In this document: positions 1 to 20,714 of the stretch, piece by piece | Position numbering within the stretch: the first letter of the stretch is position 1 | Layout of the letters: each line of letters starts with the position of its first letter | Program-made: the position numbers and the translations under genes | The notes under the pieces: model-generated | Told to the model about the DNA's origin: nothing | What the model saw: only the letters and a program-made list of their open reading frames with translations | The model's database searches: none | Source of the DNA: Jimgerdemannia flammicorona | Lineage: Eukaryota; Mucoromycota; Endogonomycetes; Endogonales; Endogonaceae | Assembly: GCA_003990745.1 (NCBI GenBank) | Contig: RBNI01001501.1 | Span: 1-22,157, forward strand | Direction: 5' to 3' | DNA: 22,157 nucleotides

Positions 1-1365
1 GGGGGGGGTGCTATCTGACTCCTCCTCCCAAACTTCAAAAGTACTATTGGCATAGGGATCCCTGCCCAGCACCTTCACAGCCCATTCCTCAGTCACCTCC
101 ACCTCCTCTCCTCCTTTGCTAGCCCATATGCTGGCTTTGATGCCTCCAGACTCCTCAGCCCCTTCTGCCTTCCTCTTCTCCTCTCCTGTCATACTCACCA
201 ACAGCTCCCTCTGCCTCTTGCACCCCTGTACCCTCTCCCACTGTCACCTGTCAGTATGGATATGCTTTCCATCCACCACCTCCAGATGCATCGACTCTTC
301 AAACTGCTTTTATGCTTTTGCCCTCCTCTCCACCATACTGCCCAGCTCCTCCAGCACCTCCAACAGATCCTCCTCCTCCTCTTCACTCCCTTTCACTCTT
401 GACACCTTACAGATGAAGGCTCCCCACATCAGCACTGAGGGCCAGTCACTTGTCTTCCCTGTGGCCTCCTTCTCCACCAGCCGAATCCTGACATCGACAT
501 TGCCCATCCTGAATGTTGTCCCCTCCCACATCTGGAAGCCAATGTCCACTACATCACCATACTCTACCATCATCTCCTCCACTCTCCTCCTAGTCTCCTC
601 CTTAGTCACTGTGGGCACCCTCCTCACCAGAAGCTGCACCACCCTGAGGTCCCACCTCATGCACCTCACTATGGGGACCACTACCTCCCTGACCACTACT
701 CCCATCTTCAGGGTCTCACCCAGAGGGCCTTCCTCCTCAAAGCCCACCTCAACCCCCTTCAGACCCTTCAAGAACTTCACCAATGCCGACCCAGCCACCT
801 GCTTTGAAATAAGCCCCAGGACCATCCTTGCTGTCACTGCCAAGCCCTGGAAGCACAAGGTAGTCACAAACTCTGAGATCGACTTCTTGAGCAATGGGGT
901 CACTGCCAGTCCCATTACACCATCTGCTAGATCCCCCTTCTACTTCGAGAACCCCTGCCCCCCCTGGCCATCAGCCATCACATCTCTTTTTTTTTCCTGA
1001 TTCGCCATCACACCTCCATTAGCAGTCCTGCCACTACCTCCAGCAGCTACTCCACTTCCCCCACCTCCCATCTGTGAAGGCCCCACTCCCCCATTATCCC
1101 CAGCCTTCTGCTTCCCCTTCCCTCCTACCTGTCTCCTGCAAGGTCCCATTGGCCAGCCCACAGTCCTCAGCATGTCTGCAAAGCTCCTTCCCTACAGCCC
1201 TCCAGCCCCCCCACCAGTGCCTCCTTTACTGCCCAAGCTGTCCTGTCCACTTGAGCCACCGAAAGACCCCATCCCCAGCCCATGCCCTCTCTTTACATGC
1301 TGCCAGTTGAAGGCCCCAGGTCCGCCCGACCTAGTATGCATGTCAGCTTGCTTACTGGTTGACAT
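1..1365 (-). pseudogene. LINE ORF1 (gag-like), copy A, decayed and cut by the window edge
   Basis: This is the nucleic-acid-binding ORF1 of a non-LTR retrotransposon, read right to left. One frame runs from an ATG at 1365 (MSTSKQADM) to position 1, interrupted by stops near 1192, 940 and 310. It matches the ORF1 at 7609-9527 block by block: GAFNWQ against SAFGWQ near the start, SFADM against TFADI, PLLKKSISEF against PLLKKSRSEF, then the RVKG-acidic-DLLEVLE segment. No CCHC knuckle is visible in the part present. About 55 bases of possible 5' UTR (to ~1420) separate the ATG from an unrelated RT fragment. CpG is reduced but present. The long Pro/Ser-rich open frames on the plus strand here are antisense shadows. 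The identity as ORF1 rests on synteny with the second copy, where an endonuclease/RT ORF2 follows it. Confidence 0.8.
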
Positions 1366-5169: not shown

Positions 5170-5752
5170 CATTTAAAGATAAAGTAGATCAATTAACAAT
5201 ATTTATAGAATAGGTTGATATTAATTATTATATCAATAGTTGAAATGACAATTGAAATCCAGACAGTACTCTCAATAGTAATGAGCATTATGAGATTGAA
5301 TATCTCTATATAACTGCAGGCTTAAAAGTAGAAAAAGTCACTACATACTTTATAGACACAGCTGTCTAGTGATGGCATAATCTGCCAGTATATTCTCTTA
5401 CCTGGGAAACTCATATCAAAATTAATATAAGTAAAGGAGATAATGATCACCCTGACTATAAAGTCTACCTAACTATAATAGACCTAAAGAAACTAATAAC
5501 CCAACAGTTATACAGCTCTGTCCACATTACCAAAGTCAGAACTAAGCTCAAGAATCTGTAATTCTATAATAATAAAAAAGAAGATCTTAAAGTATTTACT
5601 ACAAGACTGAAAACTCTACTGAATACTATAGGAGCATAATACAGCTAGTGAGAATAGACTGTAAATAGAACTCAAGCTGTCTATTTATTTGATACTATCT
5701 CTGAATAGTTATTAGAAAAAATCTATAAATAAGAATAACTTTATGATTGCCT
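5170..5752 (+). pseudogene. Ty3/gypsy gag remnant (element E0), first segment
   Basis: This is the capsid part of a retrotransposon Gag. A single plus-strand frame, interrupted only by TAG/TAA/TGA that fit lost Gln or Trp codons, reads KDKVDQLTIF near the start. It continues with HNLPVYSLTWETHIK, DLKKLITQQLYSS and FYNNKKEDLKVFTTRLK. The pattern resembles the retrotransposon gag domain in which a Trp-containing helix precedes a long Gln/Lys-rich region. The frame is broken by the LINE at 5753 and resumes at 9639 in phase. Base composition is strongly AT with almost no CpG, unlike the inserted LINE. The 5' end of the gene is not defined. Confidence 0.7.
5735..5752. repeat. LINE target-site duplication, left copy (18 bp)
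   Basis: ATAACTTTATGATTGCCT occurs here and, identically, at 9621-9638. Removing 5753-9638 restores a continuous gag frame, so this is the target-site duplication of the inserted LINE. Confidence 0.93.
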
Positions 5753-7577
5753 TCTCCTGGTCCAGAAACACTAACCTGCCATCAACTCCTGCTGTCCGAG
5801 CACCCTCAATCATGCCATGAACCCAAGCTGTCCCATCTCTAATCAACTGCCCACCAACAAACCCACGCTGCTCCACTCCAAGCACCTGCTGAGCGATTCC
5901 TTGCAGCCTTAACACTAAGATCTTGGTCACCAATTTGCAGTCTATGTCGAGAAGCATAATCGGCTGCCAGTTCTTCCAGTCCTCATGCCTCCCCTTATCC
6001 TTGTAGAGCAAGGAGACCAACCCTAAGCACTGTCCCCCAATCCAGGCACCAGATCGAAGAACTTCACCACACATAGCAGTCATCTCTTCAAGCACCTCAC
6101 CAACTCCAGCCATTTTCTGCCAAAAATCCCAGAGAAGCCCATCCTCTCCTGGGGCAGTCCCTTTACTCATCAAGGCCATAACTCTGCAAATCTCCTCACC
6201 ACACACTGGGTCTCCTAATGTCCTAAGTCCCTCCACAGGGTTTGGAATCCAATCTCCCAACTGCCTCTCAATGTCCATAGCATTCATCCCTCCTTCTTCC
6301 TCACTCCACAAATTCCCCCACCTGTTCCGCAATAACCCCAGAATCGCTGGAGACCCCACTACCAGCTCGCCGTTCGTGTCCAGAACCCTCTCCCACCACT
6401 GCCTCGTTCGTCGCGCTTGCAATAACCTCGATAAAAACCTTGTAGGTCTCTCCCCTTCCTCCAGTCCCTGCCACCACAAGCAGGCCACCATTCCCTGAAG
6501 CTTCACCTCCTCCTCCTTCCGTAATACTCCTTTAAGCTCGTCGACCTCCTGTCGGATCTGCACAATATGCCAATCAGTCACCTCCCCATCCTCCAGCACC
6601 CCTGCCCACCTCCCCATAAGTGCTGCCAGGTGCCGGGAGGCCCACAGTACCCGCTATCTTCGCTGAGTACACTTCCCTTTCCCTGCCTCCCTCCAATACC
6701 TCTGGGCAGTTGCCTTCAGTCTTCTCCAATGGTCTCCAATTTCCAAGCCCTGGTCCTGCCACCGACTAATATTCCCAACCACCTCTGTCTCCCATCCCTC
6801 CCACAATATCCTATCCTCCAACAAAGAGGAATTTAGCCACCAATATCCAGGCCCATCCTCATTTCCCCCAAACCTCCCCCTACCAAGCAGCCCCCAGTGA
6901 TCAGACCATGGACACCATATCACATCCAGCACTGACCAGACATCTGCTCCCCAACACTTGGCTGTTAGAACCCAGTCAATCCTGGAACCCAGCCCTGCCA
7001 CCCAATGGGTGTATACCTGCCAATCGGCCCAAAGGTGTCTTCCGGAGTCTACTAAAGAACACAATCACTCTATTTCCAGCCAGTCCCCTAGCCCACCACT
7101 TTCTCCCCGCACACCTCTACCACCATCAGTCCTATCCTTCTCCTTATCTCGTACCATATTGAAGTCACCCCCCATACAATCCAAGCCAACTTCTCCCAAT
7201 ACACCAGCCTCTTTCAATCGGTGCATCCAATTCACTCTCTCCCCTCTTTCAGCTGGGCAGTAACATGACCCAACCATCAACGAGCCCTGTCCAGGCCTCC
7301 TCCACAAACCCCACACCACCCAAGACCCCCAATGTCCAATGTCCACAATGTCCCCCAACCCTCTCCTAATGAGAATACATACTTTCCCCCTCCATACTGC
7401 CACACTCCCCCATTCCTTAGTCCAATCCTGTAGGTCCACCTCTTCCTCATATCAAATATCCTGTAGCAAGAAGAGGTCCACGTCCAGTCCCTTGAGCCAA
7501 CCAAAAATGAACTTCCTCCTAGCTGCCCCCTGTAACCCATTCATGTTCAATGAGAATATCCTGGTTGTACTGTTCAT
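5753..7577 (-). pseudogene. LINE ORF2: apurinic-type endonuclease plus truncated reverse transcriptase
   Basis: The protein nicks target DNA and primes reverse transcription. The frame opens at ATG 7577 (MNSTTRIFSLNMNG) and runs about 608 codons to the truncation. Endonuclease motifs are visible in order: SLNMNG (Asn of motif I), LLQDI where LLQET is usual, GDFNMV, SRIDWVL, and SDHWGL with the catalytic Asp-His. The RT region shows VSLLYKDKGRHEDWKNWQPIMLLD, then EQRGFVGGQLIRDG, then FLDQEKA of motif A, where the copy stops. Compared with the usual pattern, NWRPI has become NWQPI and GR has become GQ, both G-to-A changes. In-frame stops are TGA at 7452-7454, TGA at 7065-7067 and TAG at 6654-6656, each one transition from an Arg, Trp or Gln codon. 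It cannot be active: RT motifs B to E are missing. Confidence 0.88.
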
Positions 7578-7608
7578 ATTGAAGAAATGTTGAATAGACT
7601 CCCCCAAC

Positions 7609-9527
7609 CTAATACTCCATGCTCATCTCATCTCCAGCCAGATCCAAGTGCCTTTCCACCTCCAAGTCACCCTCCACAATAGCCTGAGCATCCAGTGCCT
7701 CCAAGATTTCCTGGCATTCCACACCATCCATGACCTCCATCTCTGACCAGTAATCCAGGCAGACTGTGTGCCACTTCTCCAGCCCCTTCCTCAAATTCCA
7801 CAAGAACAGTGCCCTGTCGCTCACAATCTTCCGAAGCTCCTCCTCTCTCTGATCATCCACCTGATATTCAACAGATTCCAAGAGGACAGCCAGGATCTCA
7901 TTCCTCATCTTCCTCAGCACCTCCTTCCCTCGCAGAATCTCCTCCCAATGCCTCTCCTCCATCACCCGGAAGTCCTCACCCCCCAGCTCTTCTGCCGCCA
8001 CCCCTTCTAGGGTCTTCCACATCCACTTTTCCTCATCCACTGCCTCTGCCGCACCCTGAGAGATACAGCCCCCATCCACCCCCGGGTCTATCAGCATGCT
8101 CCTCCTCACTAACTCATCCCACTCCTCATCCGGCACATCCATCAGCCTCAGCCCCACCCGGAACACTATACTGAGGGTGCACACCCTTACCCATTTCCGC
8201 ATCTACTGCTGACACATCTTCCTCCTCTATCCTCCCTCCCATCTGAGCCCCACCTTGGGCTAACTCTCCCCCCTCAGCCCAAGTGCTCTCCTGCAATCCT
8301 GTAGCACCTTCTTCCGAGCTTCCACTGGTCCTTCCCTCACCCAGCCTCACCAGCAGCTCTTTCTGTATTTTCCTCCCCTGCATCTTCTCCCAAACCCCTT
8401 TCTCCATCTGAACCTTCTTCCCATCCACCTCCCCTACCACCATCCTGGCCTCGAACTCGTTCCAGGCCAATCTCCTCCTTGCAACCGCCCCTTCCAGATC
8501 CTCCAGCACCTCCAATAGGTCCTCCTCCTCCTCCTGGGTCCCCTTCACCCTCACAACCTTACACTCCACTGGCCCCCACCTTAGCATCACCGGCCAGTCC
8601 CTTGACCTTCCCGTATTCTCCTTCCTAAACAGCCTCACCCTGATGTCGACGTCACCAGTCCTAAGCATGGTGCCCTCCCAGACCTTGAACCCAACATCCA
8701 CGATCTCGCCATACTCCTTGATCGCCTCCACGATGAACTCCCTGGTCCCTGGTCCTCTCCTTCGACACAGTTGGGAGATCCAACACCGTCAACTGCACCA
8801 CCCGAGGGTCCCAGCACATGCACCGGGCCATAGGAACCACCACCCCACCAACCATCACCCCCTTCTCCATGGCTGCCAACAGGGTGTCTTCCTTCTCAAA
8901 CTCCACCTCTACCCCCTCCTTTCCCCTCAAAAACTTCACTGAGGCCGCTCCCTTAGCCTCTTGCACCACCAGCCCCAAAATCATCCTCACCGTCACTACC
9001 AGGCCCCGGAAGCACATAGTGACTGCGAATTCCGACCTTGACTTCTTGAGTAATGGGGCCGACACCATGCCCATCACACCATCTGCCAGGTCCCCGGGCC
9101 TCGTGCCCCCTCCCAGCCCCCCATCGCCAACCACCGTCACATCTGGATTTTTTGCCAGATCCCCAGTCACAGCCCCATCAGCAGTCACAGCCCCATCTCC
9201 AGCCCCTACTCTGGCTCCCACCCTACCACCAGAGGCACCCCTGGGCACACCGCCCTGTCTTCTAGCAGCAGTCGTCGAAGCCTTCCCCAGGCCCAGCCAA
9301 CCATCTAGTCCAGAAGCCAACTTCCCCATTCGGACTATATCAGCAAAAGTTGACCTCTCCTCTCCTCTCTGCCTCAGACTGCCTCTCCCTCCACCGCCGG
9401 TGCCTCTGCTCACCCTCGAGGCCTCTGGCATCCCCAAACCATCACCTCTCCTCCCCACCTGCTGCCAGCCAAAGGCACTGTCACCCCCCTGGCCAGTACA
9501 CTCACCAGTTTGATTGGTGCTATCTAT
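7609..9527 (-). pseudogene. LINE ORF1 (gag-like), frameshifted
   Basis: This is the RNA-binding ORF1 of the LINE, about 640 codons. Aligning its N-terminus with copy A (ATG at 1365) puts the start at 9525-9527, where ATA stands in place of ATG, a G-to-A change; the 21 residues up to the GAFNW/SAFGW block then align without a gap. The first frame runs to about 8750. There a 7-bp tandem duplication (CCCTGGT at 8740-8746 and 8747-8753) shifts the frame. Reading resumes as REFIVEAIKEYGEIVDVGF down to about 8150-8200, where a second shift leads to the C-terminal frame ending at TAG 7609-7611. The second shift cannot be pinned down because copy A does not extend that far. The C-terminal ~190 residues are Glu/Asp-rich and helical-looking. 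No CCHC knuckle is visible. Confidence 0.82.
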
Positions 9528-9620
9528 GTTGCTAGTCGTCCGTCACCAAAAATGTTGTAAAAAGTGTTGCCTGAGTCTTATGTCACCCGAATGGTACTGG
9601 TGAAAGATGATGCCTGCCTG

Positions 9621-10599: not shown

Positions 10600-11570
10600 G
10601 AGTCTAGTTCAGGTACTTATACAGACTATTAGAGTATAGCTTAAGTAGAGAGATATAGAAGACAGGATATATACAGATAGTCTGTAGTAATATTAACTTA
10701 TATACTGCAGAGAGTACTTGTTTAAGTATCTCTAGAAACTAATATATCTTGCTTGAAGTTTCTTAGATAAGAATACTTGATTACCAATCTTGAATTCAAT
10801 CTCCTGTCTCTTAATTTTGACATATATATTTGACTTATTATATCTGAGCCTTGAGCAGATTATTTTTAGCAACTTGAATCATTGTAGTTATATCATCAAT
10901 AAGGTCTTAGATAGTAGGAACTTTAGAGAGTTCTTTTCCAACTTGAGCCAGTAGGTTTGATGGAGTTTTTACATATTGACTATATAGTAACTTAAAAGAT
11001 ATAAAGTCTATTGATGCTTATACTGAGTTATTGTAGATAAACTTTATAAAGATATTATTTCTAGTTGTCTTGTTTATAAGAAACATAGTTTCTTAACATC
11101 TGTTTGAGGGTCTGGTTTACTTGCTCAGTTATCTATTAGTTTGTGAGTAATATACTATACTTAGAGCTTGTTGAACACTAAGTATCTTGAACAACATCTG
11201 TGGAAATAACTTGTAAATTTTGGATCTCAATCACTAATCATGATTTTTGAAAGACTATAATTTCAAAAGATTGTCTTAAAGAATATTTTAGCAGTATCAG
11301 AGGTAGTAGTATTGATTTTGGTTAGCTCTAGCTTGATAGTCTTAGTGAGGTGATTAATAAAGATAATAATGATATTATTTTCTTAAAATATCTTAGATAG
11401 TTGGATAATAAAGTCTATTGTAACTTACTTCTATTTAGTAGCTAAAACTGAGAGAGATTGGAGTAGACTATATAGCTATAATCTTGATATCTTGTTCTTT
11501 TGGCAGTAATCATAAGTAGATATATATTCCTTAATATCTTAATTTATTATAGGTTAGAAGAAGTATATAA
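10600..11570 (-). pseudogene. E1 integrase, heavily decayed and split by E2
   Basis: The minus-strand segments read as a Ty3/gypsy integrase. Near the E2 junction the frame gives YFF*P...DIKEYISTYDYCQKNK, the end of the zinc-binding region with one Cys now Tyr. Then comes VTIDFIIQL (first catalytic Asp). SD*DPKFTSYF follows (second Asp). The HPQTDGQTEQ-type segment has CAC, CCA, GAT and GGA turned into TAC, TCA, AAT and AGA, then loses one base before ACTGAGCAAGTAAACC, which still encodes the Glu. A C-terminal RQEIEFKIGNQVFLSKKLQ segment leads to the chromodomain. The upstream part of the integrase lies on the far side of E2, after 20371. Most damage is C-to-T on the coding strand or its complement. 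Confidence 0.83.
11567..11570. repeat. E2 target-site duplication ATAA (partner at 20372-20375)
   Basis: ATAA directly precedes the first TG of the 5' LTR and directly follows the final CA of the 3' LTR. Four bases is short, and 5 bp is commoner for Ty3/gypsy elements. The call rests on both copies being flush with the LTR ends. Confidence 0.6.
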
Positions 11571-11725
11571 TGTAATGGTGACTCCAGAATGATGACATCA
11601 GTACAGAAGACAGCCTTTCCTTGCAAGCCATCAGATCAAAGCATAAAGAGATCATATGGCATATAAGATGAGCAATAATGACCAACTGTGAGTCATTGTG
11701 ACCACCATATGGGTATCTTGAGAAA

Positions 11726-11733
11726 TATAAAAG
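11726..11733 (+). promoter_or_regulatory. Internal U3 TATA box (5' LTR)
   Basis: TATAAAAG lies 80 bases before the ATG of the LTR-encoded ORF. It is conserved at 18975-18982 in the other LTR at the same distance. It is a candidate promoter for that ORF, distinct from the element promoter 1.16 kb further on. Confidence 0.5.
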
Positions 11734-11813
11734 AAGGATCAAGGAACTGCAGTAGCAGTAACCAACAAGACTCACTAATTCCAAAATAGCTCAAAGACTT
11801 ACTATAAAACAAA

Positions 11814-12656
11814 ATGTCTGCTGCTTGCCAAACCTCAAGGTTAAGGAATTACCAAGACACCTCAGTTGAAGAAAGAATGTTCTAAGACATCAGAAGAATT
11901 ATGAGGACTCACTCAAGAAGGACTCCTAGTATCAACCTGGGTACTGGTGACTCTTATCATTATATCCTCTATCACTGTGAAATAGAAACAAGGATCACCA
12001 TTGCTACTGAATATCTCCAAATGTGGCAGGAGTACAAGATAGGAAACCTCCTCTGCCAGGAGTTTCCACAGGTTAGCACTCAAGAGCTACAAGATGCCAC
12101 TCCTATGAATATATACAAAACAAGGACAGCTAAGAAGATCTATCAGATCTTTAGGCATGTACCATGGTTGATCCCCAACTTGGAGTATATTAGAATCTCA
12201 GACTTCAGAGACCTGTCAGCCTACCATATCAATACACTAGAAGTCAGAGTGGCTACAGAAGCCCAGTCTACTATCACCCTCAATAGTGATAAAGTAGAAG
12301 ACTTCTGGTATCCCATCCTCCAGGACAACCCAGACCAATTCTTGCAAGAATTGATCTCAGTATTCCAAGGCCTAAGCATCCAAGTTAGACCTCCATAAGA
12401 CCCCATATTTGTCCCCTATTTTGTAGAAGAGAATTTCATAGACTGAAGAGCCCCAGACCTCCTTGTTCCTGCAACTGCTGAACATGATGATATCATTGGC
12501 AATGATGTCATCCTGCATGACATACATGAAATGCACAATATATATAAAACATGCAACCTACATGATAATGATAAATTTGTAGACCTCATCTCCTTCAAAG
12601 ACATCCTGACCTCTGATAAGGATAAAGCCCCTATAGTCTTGAACATTTTGCTCTAA
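11814..12656 (+). pseudogene. LTR-encoded ORF, 5' copy; unrecognised protein of 280 codons
   Basis: An open frame lies wholly inside U3, starting MSAACQTSR and ending at TAA 12654-12656. Stops interrupt it at 11883 (TAA), 12396 (TAA) and 12444 (TGA). At the first two the 3' LTR copy has CAA (Gln); at the third it has TAG, so the ancestor was most simply TGG (Trp). Visible traits: a basic N-terminus (MRTHSRRTPS), a Trp/Ile-rich middle (KKIYQIFRHVPWLIPNLEYI), then LNSDKVEDFW and DNPDQFLQELISVFQG. The acidic C-terminus is repeated more clearly in the other copy. No signal peptide, membrane segment or known domain is recognised. It could be a late accessory gene of the element or a captured host gene. 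Function is unknown. Confidence 0.75.
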
Positions 12657-12882
12657 AGTTCTTTGGTTACACTGAGTTATACCAGCACTGGCATTCTGAT
12701 GTAACACTGAATTATTTCAGTACCATTTTTCTATACTACTGAAATTATACTAGTATTCTGAACCTATATAACCATCAGTACCAATTCTGGAACTTAGTAG
12801 TTTTTCCTGTCCTGGCATTTTATTTTAGTTATTGGAATTTATATTTAGCTTTATATCTTAGCAACTATTGAATTATATTTTG

Positions 12883-12890
12883 TATAAATA
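12883..12890 (+). promoter_or_regulatory. Main E2 TATA box (5' LTR)
   Basis: TATAAATA followed by CCCCTCTTATT lies 240 bases before the LTR end and is conserved at 20131-20138. This is the likely start region of the genomic RNA (R begins shortly after). Confidence 0.65.
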
Positions 12891-12909
12891 CCCCTCTTAT
12901 TTTCTCTGA

Positions 12910-12915
12910 AATAAA
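12910..12915 (+). promoter_or_regulatory. Poly-A signal AATAAA (5' LTR)
   Basis: AATAAA lies 20 bases after the main TATA box. The same word is at 20158-20163 in the 3' LTR, where it could end both genomic RNA and a transcript of the LTR-encoded ORF. Confidence 0.5.
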
Positions 12916-13126
12916 CTCAGTCTACTTAGTATAATACATACAATTTCTTACAAGTAATCTAAAGAGATAATAAGACAGTTTAAAGATAAGAAGTTTGAGG
13001 ACTATAAGACCTTAGAAAGGTACTCCAATAAGAACTTGCTTATAACAAACTTGAGTTAGTCTAAGAGATATACCTTAAAGAGAATCTGACATATTTGAAG
13101 GACTCAGCAACCACTATGTGACAACT

Positions 13127-13143
13127 TGGTGCCTATTGGCTGG
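13127..13143 (+). promoter_or_regulatory. Candidate primer-binding site
   Basis: TGGTGCCTATTGGCTGG begins three bases after the 5' LTR and starts with TGG, as expected for pairing with the CCA end of a tRNA. A GATTCAAAAC word follows nearby, similar to the complement of a tRNA T-loop, but its spacing does not fit a canonical tRNA, so I do not name the primer tRNA. Confidence 0.45.
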
Positions 13144-13249
13144 TGATTCAAAACAAATCCCTCACTTTCAAGCTGAAAAATAAACAACCTCCACAACAAC
13201 TACTCTGACTACAAGAGTCACCTCTGCAAGAATTCAAGATAAGATAGAA

Positions 13250-14590
13250 ATGTATATCCCTATATTCTATAGATATACTACTAAAGAGTCAATCCTGACC
13301 TTCATTGAAGACTTTGAACAATTTGCCACTATATGAGCCCTTGGTGTGGATGCACAATTGGCCCTTCTATCAGTCAGCCTCAGAGGACCTGCCAGAGATA
13401 AGTTCAATACAGCCACTATTGCTGATAATGGTACAGCCAAACTTGCCAACATGAAGGTCTTCCTTGGAACAACATACTATACTGAAGAGATCAAGTAAGC
13501 TCTCAAGGATCAACTCAATACTATCTGCCAGGGACTCAGTAAAGATCCCAACTCATTCTATACCCAAATCTGCCACCAGATTGTCTTGGCTGGCTATGAT
13601 GACCACCTCAAGGAACAAATAGTAGATTTAACCATCCTCAAAGAAGTTCACCCTGAAATTGCCCTAGCAATCCAGTCTACCCCAGCTGTACTGACCCTTG
13701 ATCAGAAAGTGGTCTTTGCATAGAGATATTAGACTGCCAGACATCCTACCAAATACTCAATAGAGAAAATAACTGGCATCAAGATGGAGCCATCAAAGCC
13801 AACTAGTATTATACCTGCTACAGTTGTAAACAGACAACCAACCCCACCTACCCCCAAGGCAGCCAAAGCTAACTCAGTGGAGGAACTTGCCAAGTAGTTC
13901 ACCAAAATGACTGCACACCTTGGTGATGTTGTTAGAGAAGTCTGAAGTGCCAACAGAAGACCAGTGCAGAGATTTGTAGCTACTACAGAAGAATACAATA
14001 TCACATACTTCAGATGTAGAGAAGAAGGCCACTATGTAAAGAATTGCATGACTGAAACAAGATGCAAAGCCCAACCAAGCAATGCTAACAGAACCAGAGA
14101 ACAAACTAATGCAGTAGTCATTGAGGAGATTAGTGACACTGATGATGAAGAATACTACAAGGAGCTTGAATTCTATCCTACTACTAAAGGTACCAGAACC
14201 TGGTCCAAGCTCTATGACAAGAAGAGCAACAGTAAGCCAGTTGGAAGACCAAAGAAGACCCCAGCTATCACTATTCAAAGCAAGGCTCAATCTGAGGAGA
14301 TTGATCAAGACATAGAGTTAGATGAAGCTGCCTGCCAAATCATTGAAGGCACTACTCCAGTCTCAGGAGAAAGTGAAAGTAAGAAGGAACAGAAGCTGCA
14401 CAAGACCAAGATCCACTAGTATGATATCTACAAAGATCTCAAGGAACAGAAGGTCAATGCTACTTTTGGACAGCTAGCTGAAGTCCCTGCCTTCAGATAG
14501 TAGTTGAGAGTAGGACTTGAAACTATTGCTAAGAATCAAGAGTACAAGATTGTAGAAGCTTACAATACACAGAAAGAATCAGAAGACTCA
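13250..14590 (+). pseudogene. E2 gag (capsid and nucleocapsid)
   Basis: Gag builds the virus-like particle and binds element RNA. The frame starts best at ATG 13250 (MYIPIFYRY). It is open back to 13184 without another ATG. A capsid-like region follows, with ESILTFIEDFEQFAT, SLRGPARDKFNTATI and SKDPNSFYTQICHQIVLAGYDDHLKEQ. Then come a Pro-rich hinge and, at about 14009-14051, YFRCREEGHYVKNC, a CX2CX4HX4C knuckle whose first Cys is now Tyr (TGC to TAC). An acidic tail (EEISDTDDEEYYKELEF) precedes the protease in the same frame. Stops at 13334, 13496, 13721, 13730, 13895, 13943 and 14417 all fit single transitions from Gln, Trp or Arg codons. No length-changing break is needed in gag. Confidence 0.88.
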
Positions 14591-14599
14591 GGTAAAGAA

Positions 14600-15022
14600 T
14601 CTGAAGACTAGTACAAGACATCAGCCTATACCCTATGTCAGATCAAAGATTGTATTTTTGATGCCATTATTGATACTAGTGCTAGAGGATATCTCATGAA
14701 CAAGAAGGCAATTGACCACTTAGGCTGAGATATTGAAGAGTCTGCCAAGATGGTCTATGTCATAGCAGATGATATACAAGCTACCCCCCTTGGCAAAATC
14801 TGAGAAGTCCCCATCAAGATAAGAGGAGCTACTATCCCAGTAGATGTGATTGTTATAAGTGCCACCAACTATGACATCCTCATTGGCAACCAATGACTTC
14901 ACAAGGCCAAGGCCATCATTGACCTCAATGCCCAGAAGATGTAGATCAACTATAGAGGAAGAAAGGTATAAGTCTCTATCAATGTCCACAAAGAAGTCCT
15001 ATCAGACATGGAGGAAGGAGAT
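14600..15022 (+). pseudogene. E2 aspartic protease
   Basis: The protease cuts the Gag-Pol polyprotein. It shares the gag frame. The active-site segment is FDAIIDTSARGYLMN at about 14660-14706: the Asp is kept, but DTGA has become DTSA (GGT to AGT). The C-terminal hallmark ATNYDILIGNQ*LHKAKAIIDL (14859-14927) follows, with TGA in place of the Trp of the usual DWL segment. Other stops are TGA at about 14726 and 14801, and TAG at about 14939. The Gly-to-Ser change in the triad would probably abolish activity even without the stops. After this domain the reading frame changes by -1 to enter the dUTPase. Confidence 0.85.
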
Positions 15023-15024
15023 GA

Positions 15025-15790
15025 AGAGGACACAGAAGTCTTTATGCACTCAGTGAACAAGACAAGAACAAGACACCCAAGCTCACAGATGAGCAGTGGT
15101 ACAACAAGATCATTGATGGCTATACCCCTCAAGGAAGATGCCCCCATAGTACTAGAATGTACTGCTCTGAACACCTGAATGACTGCTGGTCCTGTATCAG
15201 TGAAGTTAGGAAAATCTGCCAACAGAAATATGAGCAAGAAGCCACCAAAGCAAAAAGGAAAGCTGAAGAAGATGACCAGCCCTCTGAGCTTCAAGCTGAC
15301 AGTGATGATGAGGAGGAACAAGAATCAGACATCACCCTCAAGGTCAAGAAGTTTTACCCCAAAGTCAAGATCTCAGAATACAAGACTAAAGGAGCCATAG
15401 GAATAGACCTTACCAGCATTCAAGATGCTACCCTTGAACCACAGACCACCACCCTACTTGGCACTGGAATTGGAGTCAAGCTGCTGGAAAACTATGCTGG
15501 AATTATCAATACCAGGAGCAGTCTGGCCAAAAGTGAAATCTCAGTTAAAGGAGGAGTAATTGACCCTGATTACACTGGTAAGATCTTTTTCATAGTCAGG
15601 AATCACAACCCCACCACCCCATTCAAAGTCAAGAAGCATGACAGAATTGGCCAGATGCTGATCCATGAAATCAAGAAGTCTAAGATCACTGAAGCCATCA
15701 AACTCATTAAGACTAAGAGAGGAGAACAAGGCTTTAGATCTACTGGAAGAGGAGCCTATACCACTACTAAGATTACTGAACTTGAGCACA
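15025..15790 (+). pseudogene. E2 dUTPase domain with N-terminal Cys/His linker
   Basis: dUTPase converts dUTP to dUMP and keeps uracil out of reverse transcripts. The frame (one base back from gag-pro) is open from 15025 to a TGA at 16015. It begins with a linker containing six Cys and two His (CPHSTRMYCSEHLNDCWSC then C) and a Lys/Glu-rich stretch. The trimeric dUTPase fold follows at about 15337-15757, with all five motifs: GAIGIDL, NTRSSLA, GGVIDPDYTGKIFFIVRN, HDRIGQM and RGEQGFRSTGRG. The catalytic Asp of motif 3 region and the Tyr are present. No stop interrupts this domain. It lies between protease and RT; betaretroviruses place dUTPase before the protease, and the dUTPase-bearing lentiviruses between RNase H and integrase. 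Confidence 0.92.
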
Positions 15791-17242
15791 AGAAAGACAG
15801 AGACCAGAACAAGTATATATATACCATTGGAGAAAACTTTTCCCTGAAAGAACAACTTCTTAAGATTCTGTACCAGAATGAAGGAGTACTTGCTACAGAC
15901 TTCAGAGATATCCATAATCAAGAACTCAAATACTATCATGAAGTTGATACTGATGATACCAAGCCCATCTACCAGAAGGCCAGATCTATACCATCTGCCT
16001 ACAGAGAATGGCTATGAGCAGAACTCAAGGAAATGGAAGAAGCTGGAATCATCAAGCAAGCTATTGGTCCCTGGGCTTCACCTATTGTTCTCACCCCAAA
16101 GAAAGGAAGCAAGCCTGAAGAGTTTGCACTAAAACTCTGCATTGACTACAGGAAGCTCAATGCCATCACCAAGAAGGATAGGCAGCCCTTGCCAAATATT
16201 CAAGAAATCCTTACCACTCTTGGAAGTAAAGCCAAATACTACACCACCTTGGATCTGTTTTCAGGCTTCCATCAGATTGGTCTCACTCAAGATGCCAGTG
16301 AGAAATCAGTCTTCATCACACCTGACACCACCTATATCTACCTGCAAATGCCATTTGGAATGTGCAATGCCCCAGCAAGTTTCCAGCAAATGATGAACAG
16401 AGTCTTCAGCAATGAGATTGGAAAATAGCTCTTTGTCTATGTTGATGATATAATTATCTTCAGCAATTCTATATAAGAACATATCAACTACATATAGCTA
16501 GTTCTCAAGAAGCTCAAGGAGCATGGCCTCTATATCAAGCCCAAGAAATGTAAGTTTGTGGCTCAAGAAATTGCCTACCTAGGACATCTCATCAACCAGA
16601 CCAGAATCTACACAGATTCTATGAAGATTGAGGCTGTTGTAGTCTATCTAAGACCCAGAACAACTATAGAAGTCCATGCCTTCCTTGGACTAACCAGCTA
16701 CTACAGAAGATTCATCAAAGGATACTCTAACATTGCAGTACCTATCTATAAGCTACTGAAGAAGGAAACCAAATTTGAATGAACTAAGAAATACCAAGAA
16801 ACCTTCAATGAACTTAAGACTAGATTGACCCAAGCACCTATCCTCAGAAGACCAGATTGGAATCTAGAATTCATCCTGCAGACAGATATAAGTGCTATAG
16901 GACTTGGAGCAGTCCTAGCTCAGAAGAAAGATAGATATAAATATGTTATCTCTTATGCAAGCTGAGATACTTGTGGAGCAGAACAGAACTATGAGTCATG
17001 TAAGCTCAAATACTTAGCAGTAGTTTGGGCAGTAGACAAGTTCCACTACTACCTAGCTAGGAAACACTTCACTCTTCAAACAGACCATTCTGCTCTTGCC
17101 TAGCTATTCCATACTCTGAACCCCAAAGAAATATATACCAGATAGATCTACAGACTGTAAGAATATGACTGTACTGTCAAGCACTGCTCAGAAAGAACTA
17201 ATACCAATGCTGATGCACTCTCAAGAATACCTCAAAACACTC
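15791..17242 (+). pseudogene. E2 reverse transcriptase and RNase H
   Basis: This is in frame with the dUTPase. The lead-in HEVDTDDTKPIYQKARSIP is the usual entry to gypsy RT. RT motifs: GPWASPIVLTPKK, LCIDYRKLNAIT, YYTTLDLFSGFHQI (motif A Asp kept), QMPFGMCNAPASFQQMMN, FVYVDDIII (catalytic YVDD at 16438-16449) and GHLINQ. The connection has AFLGLTSYYRRFIKGYS. RNase H shows LQTDISAIGLGAVLAQ (usually TDAS), NYESCKLKYLAVVWAV and LQTDHSAL, ending NADALSRIP. In-frame stops at 16015, 16426, 16474, 16495, 16780, 16963, 17101, 17146 and 17158 fit Arg, Gln or Trp codons. The catalytic residues survive although the frame does not. Confidence 0.93.
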
Positions 17243-17249
17243 TCATCAA

Positions 17250-18464
17250 GACTATTCAACATGAATGGAGTTATACTATGGATTAATCAGCTACCTTGGG
17301 CAGCAGAAGATGCCCAACCACCTTGAACTCTGGACAATTACCATCATTAACTGGACTTGGAAACAGTTTGAACTAGACAACACTATACTCAGAAAAGGAG
17401 GAAAGCTAGTAATATCCAAACACAAGAAGTATCAAGTAATGAAGGAAGTACACAAACAAGGATACCTAGGAGGAACCAACACATATGACAAGGTAAGAAG
17501 AACTATGTAGTGGCCCAAAATGGAAGAAAACCTGCACCAATTTGTCAAAGGGTGTGACAAGTGCCAAAAACAGAAATAAGATCAGTAAGATCAGGTACCT
17601 GAGTCATCAAGAATTGAGCCTATCCCCTTCCACCACATTGCAATAGATATCATTGGACCACTACCAGTAACACTATCTGGAAACTGCTATATTATAGTTA
17701 TTATAGACCTCTTTATTAAATAGATAGAAGCAGGAGCATCACAAAAAGCCAATGCCCTCTCTATAGCCAACTTCCTGCACTAAAAAATCATCTGCCACTA
17801 CAAGACACCAAAGCAAATCACAACAGACTGCAGCACAGAATTTGTCAATAGATTCCATGAGATAATGTATCAGAAATACAAGATTCAGTATATCAAGACT
17901 ACTGTATACCACCCTCAAGGAAATGGACAGACAGAGAGAACTAACAAAACCCTCAAGAACATCCTGGCAAAGATCTCAGAGACATACAAGAATTGGGATA
18001 ACTACCTCCCAACTGCCCTCTCTATCCTACGAGATATATGGTCACATAGCACACACTTTACCCCAAGAGAACTGCTCTTTGGAGAAGAAGATTCTGATGG
18101 AACCTCAGCAATAAATCTAGACCTAACTTGGAGATAGATTGATGTAGAAATCTGAAGACTACACCAAATCAGGAAGAAGGCTGAAGATTACATCATCAAG
18201 TCACAAATGCTAATAAGGAAAAATGCAAAAAAGAATCACAAGATCCTAGAACCCATCCAAATTGAAGAAAAGGTCCTACTGTATCAAAATATAATAGAAG
18301 TCTCATGGTTGTGAAAACTGGAGCCCAAATAGGAAGAACCCTTCTATGTGCAAGATATCAAGGGAACTATCTTCTGGCTCAGAAAAATCTCAGAGACTAT
18401 ACTGCCTACCACAGTATATAGGAACAGACTCAAGAAGTACCATGAACCTATACAAGAGAAGTAA
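17250..18464 (+). pseudogene. E2 integrase (DD35E)
   Basis: This enzyme inserts the cDNA. The frame is a further one base back from RT-RH, through an indel near 17250. The zinc region reads HKQGYLGGTNTYDKVRRTM*WPKMEENLHQFVKGCDKCQKQK; the second His position (GHLGG in most relatives) is Tyr. The catalytic core has IAIDIIGPLP (Asp codon 17646), ITTDCSTEF (Asp 17826) and NGQTERTNKTLKN (Glu 17934). The last two are 36 codons apart, the exact DX35E spacing. A beta-rich C-terminal part with EEPFYVQDIKGTIFWL ends at TAA 18462-18464. Stops earlier (17508, 17577 and others) fit Trp or Gln. No chromodomain is visible. Confidence 0.92.
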
Positions 18465-18824
18465 AACATAATGACCACCCATAAGGTTCTAGTCCACAAA
18501 TTGTAACAGTATGTCCTGTGATCAACAGGCTATCTGTCTGGACCATTCTCTAAGAGATACAGCACCAGCAACTACTCATCCATGAGACTTTTGAAGCCAG
18601 AGGAATTCAAACCATCAACTGATTGGTCAAGATCAGAATCAGGCCCTTACTCTATATGAAGGGAGCAACCCTTCACCATCATGCCAAAATACAAAGAGAA
18701 GATACCAGTCTATAAATACTACTTTTCAACCCCTTGCCAGAGGTTATAAGATCAGCAAATTTTTCAGAACTGGACCAATGAATAAGAATATTCAAGAAGG
18801 TCCTTATTCAGGAGGAAGATGTAA
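18465..18824 (+). pseudogene. Possible C-terminal extension of E2 pol, or a small 3' ORF
   Basis: After the TAA at 18462 the integrase frame continues about 119 codons to a TAA at 18822-18824, which lies in the first bases of the LTR (ATG then TAA overlapping TGTAATGG). Five stops interrupt it, all TAA or TGA that could be lost Gln, Arg or Trp. It has an ATG at 18471 and Ser/Lys/Tyr-rich content (KPSTDWSRSESGPYS, MPKYKEKIPVYKYYF). Another frame is also fairly open from about 18600 into the LTR, so coding status is uncertain. It could equally be an untranslated leader to the polypurine tract. Confidence 0.4.
18810..18819 (+). promoter_or_regulatory. Polypurine tract
   Basis: AGGAGGAAGA lies directly before the TG of the 3' LTR. 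It primes plus-strand DNA synthesis in LTR elements. Confidence 0.8.
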
Positions 18825-18974
18825 TGGTGACCCCAGAATGATAACATCAGCACAAGAGACAACCTTTTCTTACAAGCCACTAGATTGAAGTACAAGGAGA
18901 TCATACAGCATACAAGATGAGCAATAATGACCAACTATGAGTCATTATGACCACAGTATGGATATCTTGAGGAA

Positions 18975-18982
18975 TATAAAAG
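18975..18982 (+). promoter_or_regulatory. Internal U3 TATA box (3' LTR)
   Basis: TATAAAAG lies 79 bases before the ATG at 19062, the same word and spacing as in the 5' LTR, and in a locally conserved AAGAAGGATCAAG context. Confidence 0.5.
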
Positions 18983-19061
18983 AAGGATCAAGAAACTGCA
19001 GTAGTTGTAACCAACAAGACCCACTAATCCCAAAATAGCTCAAAGACTTACCATAAACAAA

Positions 19062-19904
19062 ATGTCTGCTGCACACCAAACCTCAAGGTCAAGGAACCAC
19101 TAAGATATCTTAGTTGAAGAAAGGATGTTCCAAGACATCAGAAGAGCCATGAGGACCTGCTCAAGAAGGACTCCTAGTGTCAACCTGGGTACTGGTGACC
19201 CTTATCATTATATCCTCTATCACTGTAAAATGGAAACAAGGATCACCATTGCTACCAAATGTCTCCAAATATAGCAGGAGTATGAGATAAGAAACCTCCT
19301 CTGCTGGGAGTTCCCACAGGCCAGCACTCAAGAGCTACAAGATGCCACTTCCATAGATATATGCAAAATAAGGACAGCTAAGAAGATCTATCAGATCTTC
19401 AAGTATATACTATGGTTGATCTCTAACTTGGAGTATATTAGAGTCTCAGACTTCAGAGACCTGTCAGCCCACCATATCAATGTACTAGAAGCCAGAGTGG
19501 CTACAGAAGCCCAGTTTACTATCACTCTCAATAGTGATAAAGTAGAAGACTTCTGGCATCCCATCCTCCAGGACAACCCAGACCAATTCTTGCAAGGATT
19601 GATCTCAGTATTTCAAGGCCCAAGCATCCAGGTTAGACCTCCACAAGACCCCACATTTGTCTCCTATTTTGTGGAAGAGAACCTCATAGACTAGAGAGCC
19701 CCAGACCTCCTTGTTCCCACCACTGCCAAATATGATGACATCATTAGCAATGACATCATTCTGCATAATATACATGAAATACATGACATACATGAAATAT
19801 GCAATCTATGTGACAATGATGAATTTGTGGACCTCATCTCCTTTGAAGACATTCTGACCTCTGATGAGGATGAAGCCCCTATGGTCTTGAACATTCTGCT
19901 CTAA
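19062..19904 (+). pseudogene. LTR-encoded ORF, 3' copy; unrecognised protein of 280 codons
   Basis: This is the same length as the 5' copy (843 bases with stop). Stops are at 19101 (TAA; the 5' copy has CAA), 19272 (TAG; 5' has TGG) and 19692 (TAG; 5' has TGA). From 19275 it is open for 139 codons. The C-terminus is acidic: DNDEFVDLISFEDILTSDED, then MVLNILL. A short iteration IHEIHDIHEI precedes it; the 5' copy has lost it by substitution, not by length change. In the genomic RNA this copy would be the last gene, after pol. That position is used by accessory genes such as sag of mouse mammary tumour virus. The analogy is positional only; no sequence relation is claimed. Confidence 0.75.
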
Positions 19905-20130
19905 AGTTCTTTGGTTACACTGAATTATGTCAGCACCAGCATTCTGATATGATACTGAATTATTCCAGCACCATTTTCCTATATCACTGAAATTATACCA
20001 GTATTCTGAACCTATACAACCATCAGTACTGACCCTGGAACTTAGCAGTTTTTCCTGTTCTGGCATTTTATTTTAGTTATTGGAATTTATATTTAACTTT
20101 ATGTCTTAGCAACCATTGAATTATATTTTG

Positions 20131-20138
20131 TATAAATA
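20131..20138 (+). promoter_or_regulatory. Main E2 TATA box (3' LTR)
   Basis: TATAAATA before CCCCTCTTATTTCC is the counterpart of 12883-12890. AATAAA follows at 20158-20163. Confidence 0.6.
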
Positions 20139-20371
20139 CCCCTCTTATTTCCTCTGAAATAAACTCAGTCTACTCAGTATAATACATACAATTTCTTACA
20201 AGCAATCTAAAGAGATAATAAGATAGTTTAAAGATAAGAAGTTTGAGGACTATAAGACTTTGAGAAGGTACCCCAATAAGAACTTGCTTATAACAAACTT
20301 GAGTTAGTCTAAGAGATATACCTTGAAGAGAATCTGATGTATTTGAAGGACTCAGTGACCACTATGTGACA

Positions 20372-20714
20372 ATAATAACAAATATTGTAAATAGTTTTCT
20401 AATATCTCATATAATTAGCAAGAGAGGAGTCATAGCTTTTCTTAAATCTTGAAGTGAAGATTATTGAAATTTGAATATCTTAATAGACTGAATATGTAAT
20501 AAATAATGAAGTCTGAGTAATTATGAAAAAAAAAAAAAAAAAAATTAGAATTTGAGATATACATTTTATCTTTTTTATATATAATTTCATCAGTGATCTT
20601 ATATTCTTTTGGTAGACTTGTAAGGATTTTCTTTGTAATCAGATCCTAGTGGTATTATTCTTTTATTATATCTAAAAGAGTCTTATCTGGGGTCATCTTG
20701 ATAGTACTAAGATT
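20372..20714 (-). other. E1 RNase H-integrase linker with A19 run
   Basis: E1 sequence resumes right of E2. Read on the minus strand, the part next to E2 gives DIRKLFTIFV, which continues across E2 into YFF*P and DIKEYI of the integrase zinc region. In the middle is an uninterrupted A19 (20526-20544, plus strand). Otherwise it is AT-rich and stop-laden. No gene other than this relic is present. Confidence 0.6.

What the first reader, a model, noticed from the sequence alone, without database searches (positions are those of the whole stretch)
11814..12656. A 280-codon gene encoded entirely inside the LTR U3 of a Ty3/gypsy element
Both 1.55-kb LTRs of E2 contain an open frame of identical length (843 bases, second copy 19062-19904) on the element's sense strand, upstream of the main TATA box. 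LTR-encoded proteins are known from a few vertebrate retroviruses but are unusual in fungal gypsy elements as far as I know. The protein has a basic N-terminus, a Trp/Ile-rich middle and a strongly acidic C-terminus (FVDLISFEDILTSDED), which might suggest a regulator, but I recognise no family.
Basis: partly seen in the sequence, partly recalled or inferred. Interest (0 to 1): 0.88.

Follow-up and report, generated by a model that had tools for sequence, protein, structure and literature searches.

The report
Gene inside a fungal retrotransposon's LTR
A large family of jumping genes, in what looks like a fungus, carries a real protein-coding gene inside the repeated ends that normally hold only control signals, so each copy, and even a leftover lone end, may carry its own small gene, probably a regulator.

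Summary
Both LTRs of the Ty3/gypsy-type element carry the same 281-codon frame in U3, but here each copy has three in-frame stops. The LTRs differ by 162 transitions and 4 transversions, so this element is old and decayed. Younger copies in the same genome settle the question. Of 142 scored matches in one search, 55 have no internal stop. In 17 intact copies, transitions outside the decay context favour synonymous sites (N/S 0.27, against about 2 in both wrong frames). Codon-model omega is 0.60, against 1.5 and 1.4. Of 51 distinct loci, 25 are 5' LTRs, 21 are 3' LTRs, 4 look like solo LTRs and 1 is unclear: the gene is an LTR gene. It encodes a protein of about 270-285 aa with an Arg-rich N-terminus and an acidic C-terminus, without Pfam or PDB relatives. 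U3 reads: bZIP-type site, TATA box, gene, array of 35-bp repeats, main TATA box. I propose a self-regulating LTR: a U3-encoded nuclear regulator acting on the repeats beside its gene. That mechanism is inferred, not shown. The closest precedent is MMTV sag, by position only.

The parts
11571..13123 (+). 5' LTR (TGTAATGG...GTGACA), 1553 nt
   Evidence: Pairwise alignment. Ends set by TG...CA and by a 4-nt target duplication ATAA at 11567-11570 and 20372-20375, read from the sequence
18820..20371 (+). 3' LTR, 1552 nt; 162 transitions and 4 transversions from the 5' LTR
11814..12656 (+). U3 gene, 5' LTR copy; decayed, 3 in-frame stops
19062..19904 (+). U3 gene, 3' LTR copy; decayed, 3 in-frame stops
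11689..11695 (+). TGAGTCA, AP-1/Gcn4-type bZIP site (motif name recalled); 3' LTR copy at 18938-18944
   Evidence: exact in the first 330 nt of 33 of 49 LTRs; the other 16 hold a one- or two-transition form somewhere in those 330 nt (position not checked); 29-30 nt before TATAAAAG in 30 of 30 LTRs that have both; 0 after the first 330 nt
11726..11733 (+). TATAAAAG, proposed promoter of the U3 gene (87-88 nt before ATG); 3' LTR copy at 18975
   Evidence: TATAAA 48 of 49 LTRs, TATAAAAG 46 of 49; inside the longest fully conserved run of an 8-sequence upstream alignment
12657..12765 (+). Degenerate 35-bp tandem repeat array between the gene and the main TATA box; 3' LTR copy about 19905-20013 (outer limits approximate)
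   Evidence: Spacing 35; segment length varies 193-366 nt over 49 LTRs; 35-nt unit steps in 6 younger copies
12883..12888 (+). Main TATA box of the element; 3' LTR copy at 20131
   Evidence: 46 of 49 LTRs
12910..12915 (+). AATAAA, polyadenylation-type signal; 3' LTR copy at 20158, the only AATAAA in that LTR
   Evidence: 47 of 49 LTRs
13127..13140 (+). Primer-binding-site-like TGGTGCC...
   Evidence: TTGG or TTAG just after the LTR end in 24 of the 25 5'-LTR loci, counted by eye; primer tRNA not identified
13250..14419 (+). gag region (broken), with a weak CCHC knuckle
   Evidence: zf-CCHC E 0.011, below Pfam's cut-off
15157..16017 (+). pol part with a dUTPase domain, upstream of RT
   Evidence: Pfam dUTPase E 1.4e-25
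16033..18440 (+). RT to integrase part of pol (broken)
   Evidence: RVT_1 E 1e-15; rve_3 E 0.0055, below cut-off
18810..18819 (+). Polypurine tract AGGAGGAAGA
   Evidence: A similar purine run precedes the LTR in 20 of the 21 3'-LTR loci, counted by eye

Best explanation
Shown: U3 of this Ty3/gypsy-type family contains a real, selected protein-coding gene of about 270-285 codons, carried in both LTRs and so copied with the LTR; this window holds two decayed copies. Inferred: the gene is its own transcription unit, running from a bZIP site and TATA box near the LTR start, through the gene, to the AATAAA in R. It makes a small soluble nuclear protein with an Arg-rich N-terminus for entry or nucleic-acid binding and an acidic C-terminus for activation. 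That protein acts on the 35-bp repeats lying between its gene and the main TATA box, and so sets gag-pol transcription. Each LTR would then hold both regulator and target, and solo LTRs could still supply the protein in trans.
For: Gene: no internal stop in 55 of 142 matches and 11 of 138. In 10 of 10 copies fetched the longest ATG frame is 267-284 aa. N/S of non-YR transitions is 0.27 (0.18-0.39), against 2.01 and 1.95 in the wrong frames; omega 0.60 against 1.51 and 1.39. Distinct indels in multiples of 3: 14 of 26 inside the frame, 5 of 37 outside, or 3 of 28 outside without nine match-end trims. LTR location: 50 of 51 loci placed as 5', 3' or solo LTRs. Own unit: TGAGTCA, 29-30 nt, TATAAAAG, about 87 nt, ATG. 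Array: 35-nt steps, variable copy number; the motif (up to 2 changes) is never found after the main TATA box in 49 LTRs. Protein: 13 K/R in residues 1-60 and 18 D/E in 211-270 of P0002.
Against: No transcript, binding or activity was tested. The fold prediction failed (mean pLDDT 35.5), so no DNA-binding fold is shown. A/T-only motifs barely change under C-to-T decay, so TATA conservation is weak evidence. A TATAAA within the 60-130 nt before an ATG has a chance of roughly 7% by my own estimate, which comes from no call. Palindromes of the kind in the array are not specially dense there (5.94 per kb, against 11.2 in R-U5). Transversions do not show purifying selection (N/S 1.66, 0.89-4.55); the excess is mainly in the C-terminal 54 codons. 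CpA-context transitions are near or above neutral. The motif also turns up before the gene's stop in 15 of 49 LTRs. The array could serve host factors only.
Confidence: 0.45

Rival explanations
1. Accessory protein read from the 3' LTR. The gene is translated from genomic or spliced RNA that runs into the 3' U3, as MMTV sag is (mode of expression recalled), and works in the particle or against a host defence rather than on the LTR promoter.
For: In the 3' LTR the gene lies before the AATAAA, so on the genomic RNA (inference). No other gene lies between pol and the 3' LTR (each frame has stops shared by 21 of 21 copies). The C-terminus is hypervariable with excess nonsynonymous transversions, as in proteins that meet a variable partner.
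Against: A conserved TATA box and bZIP site sit just upstream of the gene inside the LTR, which a 3'-LTR-only gene would not need. Five of six relatives have no membrane-like segment (P0004 does reach 1.78). I did not search for splice sites.
Confidence: 0.3
2. A copy-number brake. The protein is made from LTRs and represses the element, like Ty1 p22 in yeast (recalled), so that old and solo LTRs restrain new copies.
For: High copy number: 138 of 4475 and 142 of 4424 first-look candidates were scored, and each listed match is near full length. Solo LTRs carry the frame: 4 of 51 loci, each with in-frame stops.
Against: Ty1 p22 is a Gag fragment (recalled); this protein shows no similarity to the one Gag piece tested. 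An acidic C-terminus suggests activation more than repression.
Confidence: 0.13
3. A captured host gene that rides in the LTR without serving the element.
For: No relation found to known retroelement proteins.
Against: The coding frame shows constraint across the family. All 21 distinct loci brought in by the protein search carry the LTR, 20 placed as 5' or 3' LTRs and 1 cut off by a contig end. No host homologue was seen, though the score caps would hide a distant one.
Confidence: 0.07
4. A chance open frame in U3.
For: Both window copies have stops.
Against: Intact copies, codon bias, in-frame indels and frame-specific stop depletion: mean 3.95 stops in frame against 11.8 and 27.2 in the other forward frames, 20 of the 30 DNA-found copies.
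Confidence: 0.01

Closest known systems
MMTV sag, superantigen gene in the LTR of a betaretrovirus
   Same: A gene carried by the LTR, kept open in most endogenous copies, with a highly variable C-terminus; MMTV also encodes a dUTPase (PMC11998498, passages read).
   Different: Vertebrate retrovirus with env; Sag is a type II membrane protein. This protein shows no membrane segment in 5 of 6 relatives and no match to any Pfam family or solved structure of note.
Foamy virus Tas/Bel1 and HTLV-1 Tax with its 21-bp U3 repeats (both recalled)
   Same: An element-encoded transactivator that works through U3 sites, and tandem repeats upstream of the main TATA box.
   Different: Those transactivator genes lie between env and the 3' LTR, overlapping it at most in part (recalled). 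Here gene and repeats are both wholly in U3, and transactivation is not shown.
dUTPase-bearing fungal Ty3/gypsy elements (Phanerochaete, Postia, Tuber)
   Same: Fungal gypsy element with a dUTPase; in PosPlaTy3-5 it lies between PR and RT (PMC2864245, passages read).
   Different: No LTR gene is mentioned in the passages I read.
Bdelloid rotifer LTR retrotransposons with captured extra ORFs
   Same: dUTPase and extra element genes (PMC5408684, passages read).
   Different: Their extra genes are ORF3s in addition to gag and pol. None in the passages read is in an LTR.

Membership tests
Ty3/gypsy LTR retrotransposon | Paired LTRs with target-site duplication | tested here: met
   LTR pair, 4-nt ATAA duplication
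Ty3/gypsy LTR retrotransposon | Primer-binding site after the 5' LTR and polypurine tract before the 3' LTR | tested here: met
   24 of 25 5'-LTR loci and 20 of 21 3'-LTR loci, by eye; the primer tRNA was not identified
Ty3/gypsy LTR retrotransposon | RT before integrase in pol | tested here: inconclusive
   RVT_1 at 16033-16428 E 1e-15; integrase piece at 17865-18137 only E 0.0055, below Pfam's cut-off; the order fits Ty3
Ty3/gypsy LTR retrotransposon | gag with CCHC knuckle | tested here: inconclusive
   zf-CCHC E 0.011, below cut-off, in a decayed copy
MMTV Sag family | Gene carried by the LTR | tested here: met
MMTV Sag family | Type II membrane protein | tested here: not met
   highest 19-residue Kyte-Doolittle mean 0.48-0.97 in 5 of 6 relatives (0.74 in the full-length P0002); the partial P0004 reaches 1.78
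MMTV Sag family | Sequence homology to Sag | tested here: not met
   no Pfam family at E 1 (window protein) or E 10 (P0001, P0002); that Pfam holds a Sag family is recalled, and weak homology could be missed
LTR transactivator (Tax/Tas-like in function) | Repeated U3 sites upstream of the main promoter | tested here: met
   35-bp array before the main TATA box
LTR transactivator (Tax/Tas-like in function) | Protein binds or activates those sites | not testable with these tools
   needs binding and reporter assays
LTR transactivator (Tax/Tas-like in function) | DNA-binding or known regulator fold | tested here: inconclusive
   mean pLDDT 35.5, pTM 0.25, five-sequence alignment; no fold search was run on such a model

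The most novel reading that the evidence does not exclude
Each LTR of this family is a complete self-regulating module: a stress-type (bZIP) promoter, a regulator gene, that regulator's own 35-bp operator array, and the element's main promoter, all within 1.5 kb. Full elements and solo LTRs then form a genome-wide network of regulator genes and targets in the host, which could wire host genes to the element's regulator. Nothing I saw in my literature searches is built this way.
Probability: 0.3. Interest if true: 0.87.

Novelty: new variant of a known kind. Interest (0 to 1): 0.74.

Why it matters
LTRs are usually treated as non-coding control DNA. A selected gene wholly inside U3 of a high-copy Ty3/gypsy-type family shows that the coding-LTR design, which I know otherwise from MMTV-type retroviruses, also exists in a retroelement with no env-like gene found. 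It also means that solo LTRs, usually dismissed as relics, can carry a gene, its promoter and its candidate target sites together. That makes an open question testable: whether an LTR can carry its own trans-acting regulator, and whether host genes near such LTRs are drawn into its control. Repeat-masking would be expected to hide this gene.

Tried and rejected
Chance ORF: rejected.

An extra gene between pol and the 3' LTR (about 18470-18818) looked possible in one frame, but in each of the three frames some stops are shared by 21 of 21 3'-LTR loci. Rejected; it also serves as a negative control for the LTR gene.

Origin from Gag: the one 74-aa Gag piece tested (window 13499-13720) shows no similarity. 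The rest of Gag was not tested.

Palindrome enrichment in the array: the inverted-repeat look of each unit is visible, but 7-2-7 palindromes are also frequent elsewhere (5.94 per kb in the array, 3.48 in the ORF, 11.2 in R-U5, 0.68 before the ORF, 0 between array and TATA). I dropped it as evidence.

Structure: AlphaFold on P0002 with four relatives gave mean pLDDT 35.5. I used neither the helices nor a fold search. Translations of genome-search loci are not on the tool's allowed list, so I did not submit them.

Distant homologues: three protein searches gave only six proteins on short unnamed contigs (787-1625 nt, sources ena and jgi), P0001-P0006, one of them full length. PDB, Pfam and PHROGs gave nothing of note; a chitinase (E 0.92) and a phrog of unknown function (E 0.1) were discounted. 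NCBIfam and PADLOC were not searched.

Host: a chitin synthase 2 match over positions 2-527 of 527 (E 4.6e-244) supports a fungus, but the same search also rang over the cut-off in 4 of the 14 control genomes, named bacteria, so it is support and not proof. A Glomeromycota rRNA primer recalled from memory had no match; the rRNA search never ran, so it is unknown whether the assembly holds rRNA. Hydrophobin was uninformative because the controls were silent.

One search treated 12 minus-strand loci in the wrong orientation; it is superseded.

Selection statistics that do not help: CpA-context transitions N/S 1.10 in 11 intact and 1.16 in 40 stop-bearing copies, YR transitions 0.81, transversions 1.66 in 17 intact copies, and 1.09 and 0.75 in the two sets. 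Transversion-variable columns do not differ by codon position (13, 12, 13 of 254). Ten of 61 distinct copies were dropped before because their length was not a multiple of three.

Full report
WHAT IS THERE. The window (G000:C1501, in a 134.8-Mb assembly of 7754 contigs) contains a complete but decayed Ty3/gypsy-type element at 11571-20371. Its LTRs are 1553 and 1552 nt, start TGTAATGG and end GTGACA, and are flanked by a 4-nt duplication ATAA. A TGGTGCC-type primer site follows the 5' LTR and AGGAGGAAGA precedes the 3' LTR. Between the LTRs lie a broken gag, a pol with a dUTPase domain (E 1.4e-25) ahead of RT (E 1e-15), and a weak integrase match. The host is probably a fungus: a chitin synthase 2 family matches over nearly its full length (E 4.6e-244), although that family also rang in 4 of 14 control genomes, named bacteria.

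THE FRAME IN THE WINDOW. Both LTRs carry the 843-base frame at the stated coordinates, but each has three in-frame stops. The LTRs differ by 162 transitions and 4 transversions. Of the transitions 108 of 162 are at CpA/TpG, and neither LTR holds a single CpG where 53 and 57 would be expected. So the copy is old and worn by cytosine decay, and the question has to be settled on its relatives.

RELATIVES. A DNA search of the same genome scored 40 candidates and returned 43 matches at 84-100% identity, 37 of them over nearly the full LTR. Protein searches scored 138 matches with the window protein and 142 with P0002, a protein from a short unnamed contig, 67% identical over the whole query. Of these, 11 of 138 and 55 of 142 have no stop in the matched stretch (counted by hand). 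In 10 of 10 copies fetched the longest ATG frame is 267-284 aa, with 2-30 CpG each. Of the 11 stop-free copies, 7 start with ATG; 4 (L062, L067, L069, L070) have ATA where the window has ATG.

IT IS A SELECTED GENE. (a) In 30 LTRs found by DNA alone, the ATG is kept in 26 and is ATA in 4. Distinct indels are multiples of three in 14 of 26 cases inside the frame and 5 of 37 outside; nine of the outside ones are trims at the match ends, without which it is 3 of 28. (b) In the 20 of these 30 whose frame length is a multiple of three, mean stops are 3.95 in frame against 11.8 and 27.2 in the other forward frames and 12.5-25.6 in the reverse frames. (c) In 17 of the 21 intact copies held (the four ATA-start copies were left out; 254 gapless of 296 codon columns), variable columns number 85, 59 and 125 of 254 at codon positions 1, 2 and 3. 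Transitions outside YpR contexts give N/S 0.27 (bootstrap 0.18-0.39) in the true frame and 2.01 and 1.95 in the wrong ones. The same test in non-CpA C/G transitions gave 0.67 in 11 intact and 0.63 in 40 stop-bearing copies, against 1.30-1.48 in the wrong frames. (d) A codon model gives omega 0.60 against 1.51 and 1.39 in the wrong frames, stops masked. Against: YR-context transitions are near neutral (0.81), the few transversions give 1.66 (0.89-4.55) and do not differ by codon position (13, 12, 13 columns), and CpA transitions give 1.10-1.16. Regional counts put the transversion excess mainly in the C-terminal 54 codons, a length-variable tail. I infer that the selection signal is diluted because most changes in these copies came after insertion.

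IT IS AN LTR GENE. Of 60 loci duplicates were dropped. Of the remaining 51, 25 are 5' LTRs, 21 are 3' LTRs, 4 have no element sequence in the flanks held and look like solo LTRs (3 of these 4 with a matching 4-nt duplication, by eye), and 1 is cut off by a contig end. All 21 distinct loci brought in by the protein search carry the LTR: 20 placed as 5' or 3' LTRs, plus the one that is cut off. Of four LTR pairs tested, three are each other's nearest relatives by transversions and one is not. No second extra gene exists before the 3' LTR.

ANATOMY OF U3. In order: TGAGTCA (exact in 33 of 49 LTRs; the other 16 have a one- or two-transition form in the first 330 nt, position not checked); 29-30 nt; TATAAAAG (46 of 49; within the longest fully conserved run among 8 upstream regions); about 87 nt; ATG; the gene; then an array of about 35-bp units whose number varies (stop-to-TATA segment 193-366 nt over 49 LTRs, mostly 193, 225-229, 261-265 and 296-299); then the main TATA box (46 of 49) and the AATAAA (47 of 49). 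In six younger copies that distance is 210, 211, 246, 246, 247 and 281 nt, which are 35-nt steps, and 14 of 15 spacings between unit hits are 34-36 nt, the other 70. The array motif, with up to two changes, is absent after the main TATA box in all 49 LTRs and before the gene's stop in 34 of 49.

THE PROTEIN. P0002 (271 aa) has 13 Lys/Arg in residues 1-60 and 18 Asp/Glu in 211-270. The highest 19-residue hydropathy is 0.48-0.97 in 5 of 6 relatives; the partial P0004 reaches 1.78. It has no Pfam match at E 10 and no PDB relative of note. AlphaFold gave no confident model.

HOW IT PROBABLY WORKS. The order promoter, gene, repeat array, main promoter suggests a U3-encoded regulator acting on repeats beside its own gene. 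Shown: the gene, its location, selection on it, the two TATA-type sites and the array. Inferred: own transcription, nuclear action, binding to the array, and the direction of the effect. The leading rival is a sag-like accessory protein read from the 3' LTR.

COMPARISON. MMTV sag is the closest known case by position (PMC11998498, passages), but the protein does not look like a membrane protein. Fungal and rotifer LTR elements with dUTPase or extra ORFs are known (PMC2864245, PMC5408684, passages), but none in the passages read has an LTR gene. Searches of the held open-access library (seen as listings, with passages of PMC10787394, PMC12037069 and PMC4016481) showed me no case in a Ty3 retrotransposon; most listed papers were not opened, and subscription papers are not covered. 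Tas, Tax and Ty1 p22 are cited from recall.

VERDICT. A real and unusual gene; a new variant of a known kind, an LTR retroelement with a coding LTR. The mechanism is open but directly testable.

Noticed in passing
window 15157-16017: dUTPase domain in pol upstream of RT (Pfam E 1.4e-25); known from some basidiomycete, Tuber and rotifer LTR elements.
   Followed up: partly
window 11570-13124 and 18819-20372: No CpG at all in the LTRs and one in the internal part, against 77 in the GC-rich 5501-9600 stretch; LTR differences are nearly all transitions, mostly at CpA/TpG. This looks like methylation- or RIP-like decay.
   Followed up: partly
window 5712-9458, minus strand: GC-rich (51-60% in the 6001-9500 windows) LINE-like ORFs, with a weak reverse-transcriptase match at 5712-6617 (E 0.0038, below cut-off); by eye a related stretch lies at 310-915, minus strand.
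   Followed up: no
window 19770-19799: Nine-base tandem repeat inside the gene's acidic linker, in the part where many in-frame indels lie.
   Followed up: partly
L015 and L055 (C161 pair): Two LTRs about 7 kb apart on one contig are not each other's nearest relatives, perhaps recombination between elements.
   Followed up: no
LTR R-U5, about 20270-20330: A recurrent near-palindrome ATAAGAACTTGCTTAT, counted 35 times over 49 LTRs; unexplained.
   Followed up: no
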